Source of the DNA: Oscillatoriaceae cyanobacterium M7585_C2015_266
Lineage (GTDB): Bacteria; Cyanobacteriota; Cyanobacteriia; Cyanobacteriales; Oscillatoriaceae
Assembly (NCBI GenBank): GCA_015295835.1
Contig: DVEG01000020.1
Span: forward strand, 455,709 to 519,708
Direction: 5' to 3'
DNA: 64,000 bases
Shown in pieces: positions 13,360 to 43,466 of this stretch (its first letter is position 1; every line of letters begins with the position of its first letter). The notes below the pieces were generated by a model that worked only from the letters and a program-made list of their open reading frames with translations, had not been told where the DNA came from and searched no databases. Both the position numbers and the translations under genes were made by a program.

Positions 13360-13544
13360 AATAGACTCGAAATAAGCAGGTATAAATTTTTTGTCTCTTT
13401 TATCTATTCTTTTAAAAGCATCTTTTCCAACCGATTTACTCCACTCTTTCCGCCACTGCCACCATAATAGACTCGAAATAAGCAGGTATAAATTTTTTGT
13501 CTCTTTTATCTATTCTTTTAAAAGCATCTTTTCCAACCGATTTA
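13333..13544. repeat. Perfect 106-bp tandem duplication
   Basis: Copy one is 13333-13438 and copy two is 13439-13544. They match base for base, and the flanking bases differ (C before copy one, A before copy two). The unit is 106 bp, one more than a multiple of three, so the repeat shifts the reading frame of the minus-strand DUF262 gene. Perfect identity means the event is recent, slippage-generated, or an assembly artefact. Confidence 0.95.
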
Positions 13545-14452
13545 TATATAACATTAATCGTAGATGTAAAAATATTCCTCATTTCATTTTTCTTTTCTTC
13601 ACTTGGGTTTCTATTTTTTGCCATCCATTGATTGAGAAATTGTTTCAAATCATACCCTTTGTATTCTTTCTTCCCTTTATTATCATAATATATTGCCAAA
13701 AATCTTAGTATCATCTCTTGACCATTTGTCTCTTTTGTTTCTATTGGTATCTTCTCTTGCTCTTCTTTCTTTTTTGTTTCTCTCTGTTTTTCTTTTTTTT
13801 CACCATAAAAAATTTCCCTCCACTTTTCTTCATTCTCATCCAATTCCACAATAAGCTCATTAAGAGCTCCATGATAAATACAGGCTCTTATTTCCTGTGG
13901 TTTTAGATTTGTTCCTCCTGTATTCAATCTTTCAAAGATATAGTATATGCCTTGTCTATCTTTTTCCTCCTTCGGTTCTATAATAATAACAGGAAAAGGA
14001 TAATTCTTAAATCTCCGTTGATCTGGAGCTTCTAACTGATCAAATCTTTTACCATTATACTTATCAATAACCCCCTTCAAATTAAAACATTTACTTTTTT
14101 TAAAACGATTTTCGTAAAAATAAACAATGCTTTGTAACCTTTGGTTCCCATCAATCACTATCATTCTTTGATCTTCTTCTTTCGCAAGAAAAAGGGGAGG
14201 AACTGGAAAACCAAGTAACAGTGATTCGATCAACCGTGAAGCTTGTTTGAGCTTCCACACATAACCACGTTGAAATTCGGGAATGTATATTTCTCTTTCT
14301 TTGTATAATTTCACTAAGAACTCTATACTTAAATTTGTAGAGACTACTGACATCTTGAACTGCTCAGGAAGAGAATCGTCATCATCTTCCTCCTCATCTT
14401 CAGTTTGTGTCTGCAGTTCCTCAAGCTCGCTGTTTTGTTCAATTTCGCTCAT
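13436..14452 (-). CDS. DUF262 (ParB-like/GmrS-N type) protein, truncated by frameshift
   Basis: This is a 338-residue open frame with an acidic N terminus and a DUF262 domain. The visible motifs are FQRGYVW (about residue 60), IDGNQRLQSI (about 100) and FERLNTGGTNL (about 175). DUF262 is a ParB/Srx-like nucleotide-binding fold, best known from GmrSD-type modification-dependent restriction and other defence proteins. No DUF1524/HNH nuclease partner is visible here. The frame ends at TAA exactly where a duplicated 106-bp segment begins. Removing one copy would restore about 389 residues. The gene is much more AT-rich than its neighbours and sits beside an IS relic, which suggests acquisition by transfer. 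Whether the truncated protein works is unknown. Confidence 0.8.
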   Translation of the reverse strand: MSEIEQNSELEELQTQTEDEEEDDDDSLPEQFKMSVVSTNLSIEFLVKLYKEREIYIPEFQRGYVWKLKQASRLIESLLLGFPVPPLFLAKEEDQRMIVIDGNQRLQSIVYFYENRFKKSKCFNLKGVIDKYNGKRFDQLEAPDQRRFKNYPFPVIIIEPKEEKDRQGIYYIFERLNTGGTNLKPQEIRACIYHGALNELIVELDENEEKWREIFYGEKKEKQRETKKKEEQEKIPIETKETNGQEMILRFLAIYYDNKGKKEYKGYDLKQFLNQWMAKNRNPSEEKKNEMRNIFTSTINVIYKSVGKDAFKRIDKRDKKFIPAYFESIMVAVAERVE

Positions 14453-14737
14453 TCTGTGACCTCATATTTTGTTGGTTAACTATTATACATTAAGTGCTGA
14501 TTATCGCTCCTACCTCAAGGGGCTGAGTAAAAATATCCAGGTAAACTCGCCTCTAGACAGACCGACATCTATTTTAATCAAGCAATTGATTTGAATAAGT
14601 CGGCTGGATAAAGGAGGAAACCCCGGCTAGAAAACCCTCACCCTTTAAGGCAGCTTTTCTTGAAATCAACTGGATACACTATTTCTTTTTTTTTCTAAGT
14701 TTCATGTGCTAGACTAAGACCATACCAGCTTAAAGGC
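14453..14737. other. Spacer between DUF262 gene and TnpB relic
   Basis: I see no gene here. A stem-loop is present: AATCAA-gcaa-TTGATT at 14576-14591, nested inside CCGAC (14562-14566) and GTCGG (14599-14603). Such nested hairpins occur at left ends of IS200/IS605-family elements, so this could be the left end of the adjacent relic, but I cannot prove it. The divergent promoter of the DUF262 gene must also be here. Confidence 0.35.
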
Positions 14738-14740
14738 ATA

Positions 14741-15376
14741 GAGTCAAGATACCGCTACCGCTTCTACCCCACAAACCAACAAAAGCTACTTTTAGCTAAA
14801 CTGTACGGTTGTGCTAGATGGGTGTGGAATGAAGCGCTTGCTTACTGCCAAGAGGTGGGTAAGTACATCGGGTATAATGCACTGACTAAACGCCTGACAG
14901 TTCCAAAGAAGCAAGTAGAGTGGCTTACTGAGGTATCTAGTGTGGCTTTACAACAAGCGCTCAGAAACCTAGACAGAGCCTGTAGTAATTTCTTCAAGGG
15001 CAAAGGTGCGCCACAATTTAAGAAGAAAAGCAATAGGCAGTCTGTCACTCTCACTAAGTCTAGTTTTTCTCTGCAGGGCAAAAAAGTCTATCTTGCCAAG
15101 ATAGGGGAAATGTCTCCTATTTGGATAAAGGAGTTACCGAGTCAGCCCATTGTGGTAGAAGTGCCGCGAGTGGTAGTATCTGCCAAATTCCCTAGTATCG
15201 GTATTGACTAGGGGATAAAGGTGTTTGCTACCCTAAGTGATGGCACGAAAGCCTATAGCCCTAACTATGCCCCTCTGTATCAGCGTATTGCTCAGCTAAG
15301 CAAGAAACTGGCACGGCAGGTGAAAGGCTCAAAACGCAGAGAGCCAACTTACACGGAGAAACGAGGGTTCTGTTGA
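14741..15376 (+). pseudogene. tnpB: Decayed TnpB (IS200/IS605-family) gene
   Basis: Reading one frame through an internal stop gives a TnpB-like protein. YRYRFYPTNQQKLLLAKLYG and CARWVWNEALAYC match the N terminus, followed by ALQQALRNLDRACSNFF and FKKKSNRQSV. A TAG at 15209-15211 directly follows the RuvC-I aspartate (GID-stop-GIKVFATLSDG). Translation then continues to a TGA at 15374-15376. No good start codon is left, and the C-terminal half with the remaining RuvC residues and the zinc finger is missing. Only an open frame of 129 residues survives (14822-15211). TnpB is an RNA-guided nuclease that helps IS200/IS605 elements persist. This copy cannot be functional. It lies immediately upstream of a broken riboswitch. 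Confidence 0.85.
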
Positions 15377-15420
15377 TGTGTTAAGAATCCCCGCTATGGG
15401 AGGGCGGGTGAGTGTGTCAA
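15377..15420 (+). mobile_element. IS200/IS605-type right-end hairpin
   Basis: The stretch AAGAATCCCCGC...GGCGGGTGAGTGTGTCAA contains a CCCGC/GCGGG stem. It has the AAGAATC-hairpin-GAGTGT pattern of cyanobacterial IS200/IS605 right ends. A similar pattern occurs on the minus strand near 33.03-33.06 kb. It follows the TnpB relic and runs straight into riboswitch sequence, so it marks the element boundary. The exact boundary base is inferred. Confidence 0.6.
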
Positions 15421-15448
15421 ACCGGGTAATACCGGCGGAGAGAAGCTG
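15419..15448 (+). promoter_or_regulatory. 3' half of a TPP riboswitch, 5' half missing
   Basis: AAACCGGGTAATACCGGC followed by GGAGAGAAGCTG matches the conserved 3' half of the thiamine pyrophosphate aptamer: a short stem around TAATACC, then GCG-AGGGAAGC. It lies about 20 bp before thiC, where this riboswitch is expected. The 5' half (GGGGTGC...GGCTGAGA...ACCC...GAACCTG) is absent. The IS right end occupies its place. The aptamer should not fold, so thiC has probably lost TPP feedback. Confidence 0.7.
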
Positions 15449-15462
15449 TTTATAGAGGATAA

Positions 15463-16842
<1,380 letters not shown>

Positions 16843-17134: not shown

Positions 17135-17734
17135 TTATTTTATTTGAGAACGTTCTCTCACCCGCGCCTGAATATCTGAAATTGTAAATACAGCCTGAAA
17201 TTGCAAACCTTTTTCTTGGTAAAATTCCGCACCGCCTTGCTGCCTATCTACCAAAGCAATAATATGATCAACACAGTAACCAGCATCACGCAGACGCTCA
17301 ACCGCTTTCATTGCTGAGGCTCCCGTAGTCACCACATCCTCCAAAACCACCACCTGTGCCCCAGCCGGTAAACTAGGACCTTCAATGTATGCCCTTGTTC
17401 CGTGGCCTTTGGCCTGTTGGCGGACAATTAACGCCGGGATAGGTTGGTTTTCCAGCGCCGAAACGACACTTACCGCTGAGACAATCGGATCGGCACCTAA
17501 TGTCAGCCCCGCTACTGCTTGAGTATCCGGTGGTAATAGCGATAGTAATAGACGCCCTGTTGCCAAAGCCCCAATGGGATGCAGTGTTACTTGCTTGCCG
17601 TTAATGTAATAGGTGCTGCGCTTACCAGAAGATAGTATGAAATCGCCTTCTTGATAGGCTAAATCGCAGAATAAGTCCAGCAACTGCGTTCGCAGTGCTG
17701 TCAAGTCGGCAGTATCCACGCGAAAATTGCTCAT
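17135..17734 (-). CDS. pyrE: Orotate phosphoribosyltransferase PyrE
   Basis: PyrE transfers the phosphoribosyl group of PRPP to orotate, giving OMP in de novo pyrimidine synthesis. The PRPP-binding motif VVVLEDVVTTGASAMKA is clear, as is the orotate-binding segment ILSSGKRSTYYINGKQ. Starting at the internal Met (MSNFRVD) gives 199 residues, typical for the family. An upstream Met at 17749 would add five residues. It is transcribed away from a secreted-protein gene across a short divergent spacer. No other pyrimidine gene is adjacent. Confidence 0.95.
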   Translation of the reverse strand: MSNFRVDTADLTALRTQLLDLFCDLAYQEGDFILSSGKRSTYYINGKQVTLHPIGALATGRLLLSLLPPDTQAVAGLTLGADPIVSAVSVVSALENQPIPALIVRQQAKGHGTRAYIEGPSLPAGAQVVVLEDVVTTGASAMKAVERLRDAGYCVDHIIALVDRQQGGAEFYQEKGLQFQAVFTISDIQARVRERSQIK

Positions 17735-17835
17735 CAATTTAAAATACATGTTTAAGTCTTTATCAATTTTGCCACAAGAACAGGAAAAGATTAAAATATG
17801 GGTTAATATATGTGGGAAAATTGAGGAGTAATCTC

Positions 17836-42419: not shown

Positions 42420-43322
42420 TTATGAGGGCATCAGACTGCTGGAAGTAGCTTGCAGCCCTTCTGGCAAGGCTCTAATTTTTAAATCTTCATAAAACTCTTC
42501 TTGAGATAGTTCTACTTTGGATTGAGCTGAAAGCAGTAATAGTGCCCAGAAAATACCTACCTTATCATTAGATTTGGGCGCAGGCTCATTGCCAGAAGAA
42601 GTGCTCGCCCAGATGTCGCTTTCAGGTAAAGCCGTATCGGGTAATAGTGACAGCAGTTGTTCAAACTCCAGCCACTCCCGCTCTTGGGCAATTTGATGCC
42701 AATGAGCCGCTAAAAACCTTTCCAAGCTAGCAGCCATTTCGGAAAGATTTTCTTGGTGAGCTAAATGGGTAATTGCCTTGACTGTTTGGGCGCCAGACTT
42801 GTTACTTAAAAGTCGCTGGCTTCTGCGACGACGGGGGTTTTCTTCCATCGCTTTCGCTATCAGCTGCAGTTGTTCTAGCAACTCCTGCAGAGACACTCGG
42901 CGTTTTTGCGGAGGCTGAGCAACCGCACGGCGCCGCAACTGACGCTCCAGATGCATTGGCACAACTCGCCGAACAGCGTTTTCCCCGTCGCTCTCTTGCT
43001 CTTCTTCTATAAACTCTGGCTCCTCTTCTTCCAAAGATGGCGAGCGCAGCAGACTTTCAGCCTTAAGCCAAACCAACATTGACGCGCACAAAAACGCCTG
43101 CCCCGACTGAGACAGTGCCGCTTCTCTTTGTGCAGCCTCTGACATCGGCATAGTCTGGCTCAAGAAACGATCAATAGCTTCTATCACTTGCACATCCCAA
43201 GGATCTATTTCTCCCTGCTTTGCCAAATCCAGCAACAGCTCGATTCCCATCTGCTGTACCGATTTTGCTGCCCTGGTTTCCACAGTCGCTAGTGCATTCT
43301 TTGGCAGTGAAACTGTCATCAA
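42420..43322 (-). CDS. scpA: Segregation and condensation protein ScpA
   Basis: ScpA is the kleisin subunit of the SMC-ScpA-ScpB chromosome condensin. The 300-residue protein begins with the region that binds the SMC neck (MGIELLLDLAKQGEIDPWDV, then VIEAIDRFLSQ). The C-terminal winged helix (ALLLLSAQSKVELSQEEFYEDLKI) contacts the SMC head. The linker is acidic and Arg-rich (RRLSN, RRRR). Neither smc nor scpB is adjacent. An MM start offers two Met codons at 43322 and 43319. Confidence 0.9.
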   Translation of the reverse strand: MMTVSLPKNALATVETRAAKSVQQMGIELLLDLAKQGEIDPWDVQVIEAIDRFLSQTMPMSEAAQREAALSQSGQAFLCASMLVWLKAESLLRSPSLEEEEPEFIEEEQESDGENAVRRVVPMHLERQLRRRAVAQPPQKRRVSLQELLEQLQLIAKAMEENPRRRRSQRLLSNKSGAQTVKAITHLAHQENLSEMAASLERFLAAHWHQIAQEREWLEFEQLLSLLPDTALPESDIWASTSSGNEPAPKSNDKVGIFWALLLLSAQSKVELSQEEFYEDLKIRALPEGLQATSSSLMPS

Positions 43323-43466
43323 AAAACTGGGTTTAAACCCCCCTCCGAAAAGTACGGATTTTCGTTAGTATACTACACATATACTGTGAAAACCAAACAG
43401 CAAATTACACTTCGAAAACGAGGGTTAGGGGGTTTTTCGTAGAAATACTTACAAAAGAGCTATTGC

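What the first reader, a model, noticed from the sequence alone, without database searches (positions are those of the whole stretch)
14741..15448. TnpB relic overlies a truncated thiC TPP riboswitch
The 3' half of the TPP aptamer (15419-15448) directly follows an IS200/IS605-like right end. The 5' half, which holds the GGGGTG and CTGAGA blocks, is not found in its place. The element appears to have replaced it. This would free thiC from thiamine feedback.
Basis: partly seen in the sequence, partly recalled or inferred. Interest (0 to 1): 0.7.

Follow-up and report, generated by a model that had tools for sequence, protein, structure and literature searches.

The report
Mobile-element relic cut thiC's vitamin switch
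In this cyanobacterium the RNA switch that normally turns down vitamin B1 synthesis was cut in half by a jumping gene, now itself broken, so thiC has probably lost thiamine feedback; such losses are rare but not unique among its relatives.

Summary
Bases 15421-15450 are positions 50-79 of the cyanobacterial thiC TPP aptamer (E=2e-13), starting at the base after an IS200/IS605 right end (...GTCAA, 15420). The element holds an eroded left end, 12 codons of tnpA and a dead tnpB. No 5' half is recognisable in the left flank, and the whole genome has no RF00059 hit. All 109 thiC leaders inspected around ThiC matches in other genomes carry a full aptamer. In the order, 374 of 389 genomes have RF00059; of the 15 without it, 10 also lack thiC, leaving this genome and two other pairs (three lineages). 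The other pairs keep only decayed 3' remnants, with no element junction noted. Genes on both sides (GmrSD-like, pyrE-like) also neighbour thiC in relatives, so this is insertion plus loss in place, not rearrangement. The 26 invariant positions upstream of the junction are gone, so TPP binding is very unlikely while ThiC stays intact and constrained. Loss of feedback is inferred, not measured. 'Replaced' is partly right: the element sits inside the aptamer, and the 5' half was lost separately. A well-documented, modestly interesting case of a known kind of event.

The parts
13436..14452 (-). GmrSD-like (DUF262-type) gene, divergent from thiC; also next to thiC in four fetched loci
   Evidence: Pfam PF03235 E=2.7e-30; homologues at about 44% identity beside thiC in L032/L043 (one genome), L110 and L137
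14453..14614 (.). left flank: intergenic sequence where the thiC promoter and aptamer 5' half would be expected; no recognisable 5' half
   Evidence: AAGTGCTGATTATC and AGGGGCTGAG at about 14491-14525 look like eroded remains but are near chance level
14615..14658 (+). eroded IS605-type left-end-like stretch
   Evidence: local alignment to 10 left ends of relatives, p about 0.009 against shuffles and 0.008 against other window stretches; not found by a profile scan
14668..14705 (-). tnpA remnant (MKLRKKKK*...), about 12 codons; shared with the C29 copy, where it continues as a TnpA-like relic
   Evidence: Y1_Tnp only E=0.07 for the C29 copy
14738..15376 (+). tnpB relic: ATG to ATA start, TAG at 15209-15211 just after the RuvC-I GID motif, C-terminal half deleted, ends at TGA 15374-15376
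   Evidence: HTH_OrfB_IS605 E=4e-16, OrfB_IS605 E=1.7e-6
15385..15420 (+). IS200/IS605 right end with hairpin, ending GTCAA
   Evidence: same ending in the C29 copy and in many relatives
15421..15450 (+). retained 3' half of the thiC TPP aptamer (positions 50-79 of L007, with P5 and the 3' strand of P1)
   Evidence: (E=2e-13)
15469..16842 (+). thiC, intact, 457 aa
   Evidence: Pfam PF01964 E=2e-193; 93% identical to family relatives; pN about 0.035-0.056 against pS 0.63-0.73
17135..17749 (-). pyrE-like gene (name given here from general knowledge of the fold and its adjacency), downstream neighbour of thiC in many relatives
   Evidence: tblastn hits in about 39 of the fetched thiC loci; Pfam phosphoribosyltransferase matches just below cut-off

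Best explanation
An IS200/IS605-type element inserted into the TPP riboswitch of thiC, between aptamer positions 49 and 50 (just 3' of the conserved ACCTGA segment, just 5' of the P5 stem). Its tnpA and tnpB then decayed, and the aptamer's 5' half left of the element was deleted or eroded. What remains upstream of thiC is the element's right end joined to the 3' half of the aptamer and the native 15-20 nt before the start codon. Without the 5' strand of P1, P2, P3 and the CUGAGA junction the RNA should not bind TPP, so thiC is probably no longer repressed by thiamine pyrophosphate; it must be transcribed from a promoter in the left flank or in the element. Shown: the junction, the missing 5' half, the absence of any RF00059 match in the genome, the dead tnpB, the conserved neighbours, the intact thiC. 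Inferred: insertion before loss of the 5' half, loss of TPP response, promoter source.
For: No RF00059 match in the genome, against one in each of the 7 family relatives searched and in 374 of 389 order genomes. All 109 thiC leaders inspected carry a full aptamer. The right end stops at the base where aptamer homology begins, which an unrelated deletion would rarely produce. In L007, L008 and L012 the junction reads CCTGAC|ACCGGG; left-end/flank junctions of other elements suggest target motifs of TTAT or TGAC type, so TGAC is compatible. Genes on both sides also neighbour thiC in relatives. Of 44 invariant aptamer columns, 26 are lost. ThiC is constrained, and thiG and thiE-type genes are present.
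Against: No aptamer sequence abuts the left-end-like stretch, so insertion into an intact aptamer is not shown from both sides. The own-genome copy L002 suggests a TTTAT-type target, not TGAC. The aptamer decayed without a noted element junction in two other genera. No expression data.
Confidence: 0.75

Rival explanations
1. The riboswitch decayed or lost its 5' half first, by ordinary mutation, and the element then inserted into the remnant. Outcome for thiC is the same; the element is a bystander.
For: Two other genera keep thiC with only decayed 3' aptamer remnants and no element junction noted. No 5' half abuts the left-end-like stretch.
Against: The retained 3' half is nearly perfect (17 of 18 invariant positions), whereas in those genera the retained part is more degraded; this fits a sharp cut better than slow decay, but the 3' part may also be kept for translation.
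Confidence: 0.17
2. Assembly artefact: thiC was joined to an unrelated tnpB relic.
For: The genome is a 35-contig draft and reads are not available here.
Against: The window copy is only 72-90% identical to the other copies, so a repeat-driven misjoin is unlikely; the contig is 536 kb with the locus inside it; both neighbouring genes are neighbours of thiC elsewhere; the junction sits exactly at the element end; no aptamer was found elsewhere in the genome.
Confidence: 0.03
3. The truncated leader is still a regulator: a diverged or rearranged 5' half in the left flank or the right end pairs with the retained part and senses TPP or something else.
For: The covariance model pairs GCTA of the right end with AGC of P1 (31 bits). 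GGGGCTGAG occurs once in the window, in the left flank.
Against: That GCTA is part of the element (also in L002). The conserved 5' segments GGGGTG, CTGAGA and ACCTGA have no counterpart next to it; left-flank similarity is near chance; the leader folds no better than shuffled sequence.
Confidence: 0.05

Closest known systems
TPP riboswitch of cyanobacterial thiC (Rfam RF00059)
   Same: Same place just upstream of thiC; 30 nt in register with relatives, one change against L007.
   Different: 5' half (5' P1 strand, P2, P3, CUGAGA, ACCUGA) absent; no RF00059 match at any threshold tried; no longer an aptamer.
IS200/IS605 elements with divergent tnpA and tnpB (ISDra2/IS608 type)
   Same: Right end with hairpin ending GTCAA, tnpB 55-58% identical to intact relatives, divergent tnpA remnant, eroded left-end-like stretch.
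   Different: tnpA nearly gone, tnpB lacks its start codon, has a stop and lacks its C-terminal half; immobile relic.
Decayed thiC TPP riboswitches of G233/G309 (L184, L183) and G140/G256 (L185, L186)
   Same: thiC kept, RF00059 lost, only the 3' end of the aptamer recognisable.
   Different: No IS junction was seen in the printed leaders; they look like decay in place.
omega RNA / reRNA of TnpB (PMC8612924)
   Same: Same layout: right end followed directly by flanking DNA that would serve as the guide; here the guide position is the aptamer's 3' half.
   Different: tnpB is dead here and the other copies found in this genome are relics, so no guide activity is expected.

Membership tests
TPP riboswitch (RF00059) | covariance-model match over gathering score | tested here: not met
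   none in window or genome
TPP riboswitch (RF00059) | 5' half with GGGGTG and CTGAGA segments | tested here: not met
TPP riboswitch (RF00059) | 3' half (P5 stem and 3' P1 strand) next to thiC | tested here: met
   E=2e-13
TPP riboswitch (RF00059) | binds TPP and controls the gene | not testable with these tools
   needs in-line probing or a reporter
IS200/IS605 element | tnpB (OrfB) homology | tested here: met
   HTH_OrfB_IS605 E=4e-16, OrfB_IS605 E=1.7e-6 but below its curated cut-off; relatives 55-58%
IS200/IS605 element | right end with hairpin at a fixed terminus | tested here: met
   GTCAA end as in other copies; DNA hairpin z=-1.8
IS200/IS605 element | left end with hairpin next to a target motif | tested here: inconclusive
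   left-end-like stretch p about 0.009, no hairpin better than shuffles, no profile hit
IS200/IS605 element | Y1 transposase gene tnpA | tested here: inconclusive
   about 12 codons in the window; relic in the C29 copy, Y1_Tnp E=0.07
TnpB RNA-guided nuclease | complete RuvC nuclease domain | tested here: not met
   stop at 15209 and C-terminal half absent

The most novel reading that the evidence does not exclude
The element did more than break the switch: thiC is now driven by the IS-borne tnpB promoter and the right-end hairpin plus P5 remnant form a new leader, an IS-for-riboswitch exchange that made thiamine synthesis constitutive and was kept by selection.
Probability: 0.12. Interest if true: 0.55.

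Novelty: new member of a known kind. Interest (0 to 1): 0.38.

Why it matters
It is a natural experiment in which a nearly universal metabolic control in this order has been lost while its gene stays under constraint, with the structural cause partly visible. Together with two other lineages it shows that TPP control of thiC can be lost but rarely is (5 of about 379 sampled genomes that have RF00059 or thiC), which makes the cost of losing the feedback testable.

Tried and rejected
Rearrangement between element copies carrying the 5' half elsewhere: rejected, no 5' half pattern or RF00059 hit in the genome and both neighbours are also neighbours of thiC in relatives. Eroded 5' half at 14491-14525 (AAGTGCTGATTATC...AGGGGCTGAG, as if P2 had been deleted): attractive, but p 0.04-0.07 for the core and about 0.3 with the promoter. 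Aptamer-like match CCCGGCTAGAAAACCCT near 14621-14638: more likely part of the element's left end. L115 and L116, at first scored as lacking the aptamer, are false alarms: L115 has a long insertion in the P2 loop and L116 an intact aptamer further upstream. The 31-bit covariance hit that borrows GCTA from the right end: coincidence. Paper searches found no report of an IS in a TPP riboswitch (judged from titles and abstracts); one search failed on a formatting error; one script failed and was rerun; the library lacks most subscription journals.

Full report
What is there. The window is a cyanobacterial chromosome stretch (contig C18 of a 3.98 Mb, 35-contig genome, 98% complete). thiC (15469-16842) is intact and constrained: 93% protein identity to family relatives, pN about 0.035-0.056 against pS 0.63-0.73. 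Upstream, divergent, lies a GmrSD-like gene (13436-14452); downstream a pyrE-like gene.

The riboswitch. A profile built from relatives' leaders finds the 3' part of the thiC TPP aptamer at 15421-15479 with E=2e-13. In register with L007 it is aptamer positions 50-79, with one change, invariant G70 to A. Nothing recognisable of the 5' half exists: no RF00059 match in window or genome, no GGGGTGYC...GGCTGAGA anywhere in the genome, no profile hit in the left flank, residual similarity near chance. The covariance model R1 gives 31 bits here and 99-102 bits in L007 and L008; part of the 31 comes from GCTA of the element's right end. Of 44 invariant aptamer columns 26 are gone.

How unusual it is. 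Of 40 relatives searched, 36 have exactly one RF00059 match; the seven family members searched all have it, and in the loci compared it lies just upstream of thiC. All 109 thiC leaders inspected, L007-L035 and L066-L145, carry a full aptamer; some loci are the same genome fetched from two collections. In 389 genomes of the order 374 have a match. Of the 15 without, 10 also have no thiC match. The remaining five are this genome, G233 and G309 (one genus), and G140 and G256 (another genus). Their leaders keep a decayed 3' remnant: CCTGGGGTAATACCAGCAAAGAGAAGCTGTTTA in L183/L184 and little more than GCGGAAGCTG in L185/L186. No element junction is apparent there, but I did not search those leaders for elements. 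So loss of TPP control at thiC occurred in at least three lineages, and only here was an IS end seen at the cut.

The element. The right end 15385-15420 stops at GTCAA, as in the C29 copy and many relatives. tnpB starts at an ATA where the C29 copy has ATG, has a TAG at 15209 and lacks its C-terminal half; Pfam confirms the family; intact relatives are 55-58% identical. The other matches found in this genome are also relics. A tnpA remnant, 14668-14705 on the minus strand, is shared with the C29 copy, where it continues as a TnpA-like reading frame. A left-end-like stretch lies at 14615-14658 (p about 0.009) but has no hairpin better than chance.

Order of events. A GmrSD-like gene beside thiC also occurs in L032/L043, L110 and L137, and pyrE-like genes downstream in about 39 fetched loci, so the flanks are old neighbours and the change happened between them. 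The right end meets the aptamer to the base, which favours insertion into the aptamer at 49|50. IS200/IS605 elements integrate 3' to a short target motif without target duplication (PMC8612924) and are known not to remove target bases (general knowledge), so the 5' half must have gone in another step, before or after. In three family relatives the site reads CCTGAC|ACCGGG; left-end flanks of other elements show TTAT or TGAC type motifs, compatible but not proof, since the own-genome copy suggests TTTAT.

Function. [quoted passage not shown] With the CUGAGA junction, P2 and P3 gone, TPP binding is not expected; that is inference from the known aptamer architecture. Whether thiC expression is now high, low or under another control is unknown; no excess of sigma-70-type promoter matches over shuffles was found in 14440-15480. 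thiG- and thiE-type genes are present, so the pathway appears to be kept.

Verdict. Real, well delimited and rare; of a known kind: an insertion-sequence relic in a regulatory leader. No matching report was found in the papers searched.

Noticed in passing
L183, L184 (G309, G233) and L185, L186 (G140, G256), leaders just before thiC: Two further genera keep thiC but have only decayed 3' remnants of the TPP aptamer; L183/L184 share the G-to-A change at the position corresponding to G70 with the window.
   Followed up: partly
L011/L069 (Oscillatoriaceae cyanobacterium M33_DOE_052), thiC leader: An extra stem of about 40 nt (GAAGGTGG...CCACCTTC) is inserted in the aptamer at nearly the same junction (CTGA|CCGG) where the window's element sits.
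   Followed up: partly
L115 (Leptolyngbyaceae RU_5_1), 2726-2983: P2 loop of the thiC aptamer expanded by about 180 nt with repeats of GATTGAA/CAATCTA type; the rest of the aptamer is intact.
   Followed up: no
L138 (Drouetiella hepatica), 1159 and 2903: Two TPP aptamers: one before a gene that looks like a solute symporter (not tested), one before thiC.
   Followed up: no
G026, G059, G066, G093, G142, G148, G202, G218, G248, G257: Ten genomes of the order lack both RF00059 and a thiC match, possible thiamine auxotrophs or assembly gaps.
   Followed up: no
window 43321-43360: Another IS605-type left-end-like match (E=0.05 in a left-end profile scan).
   Followed up: no
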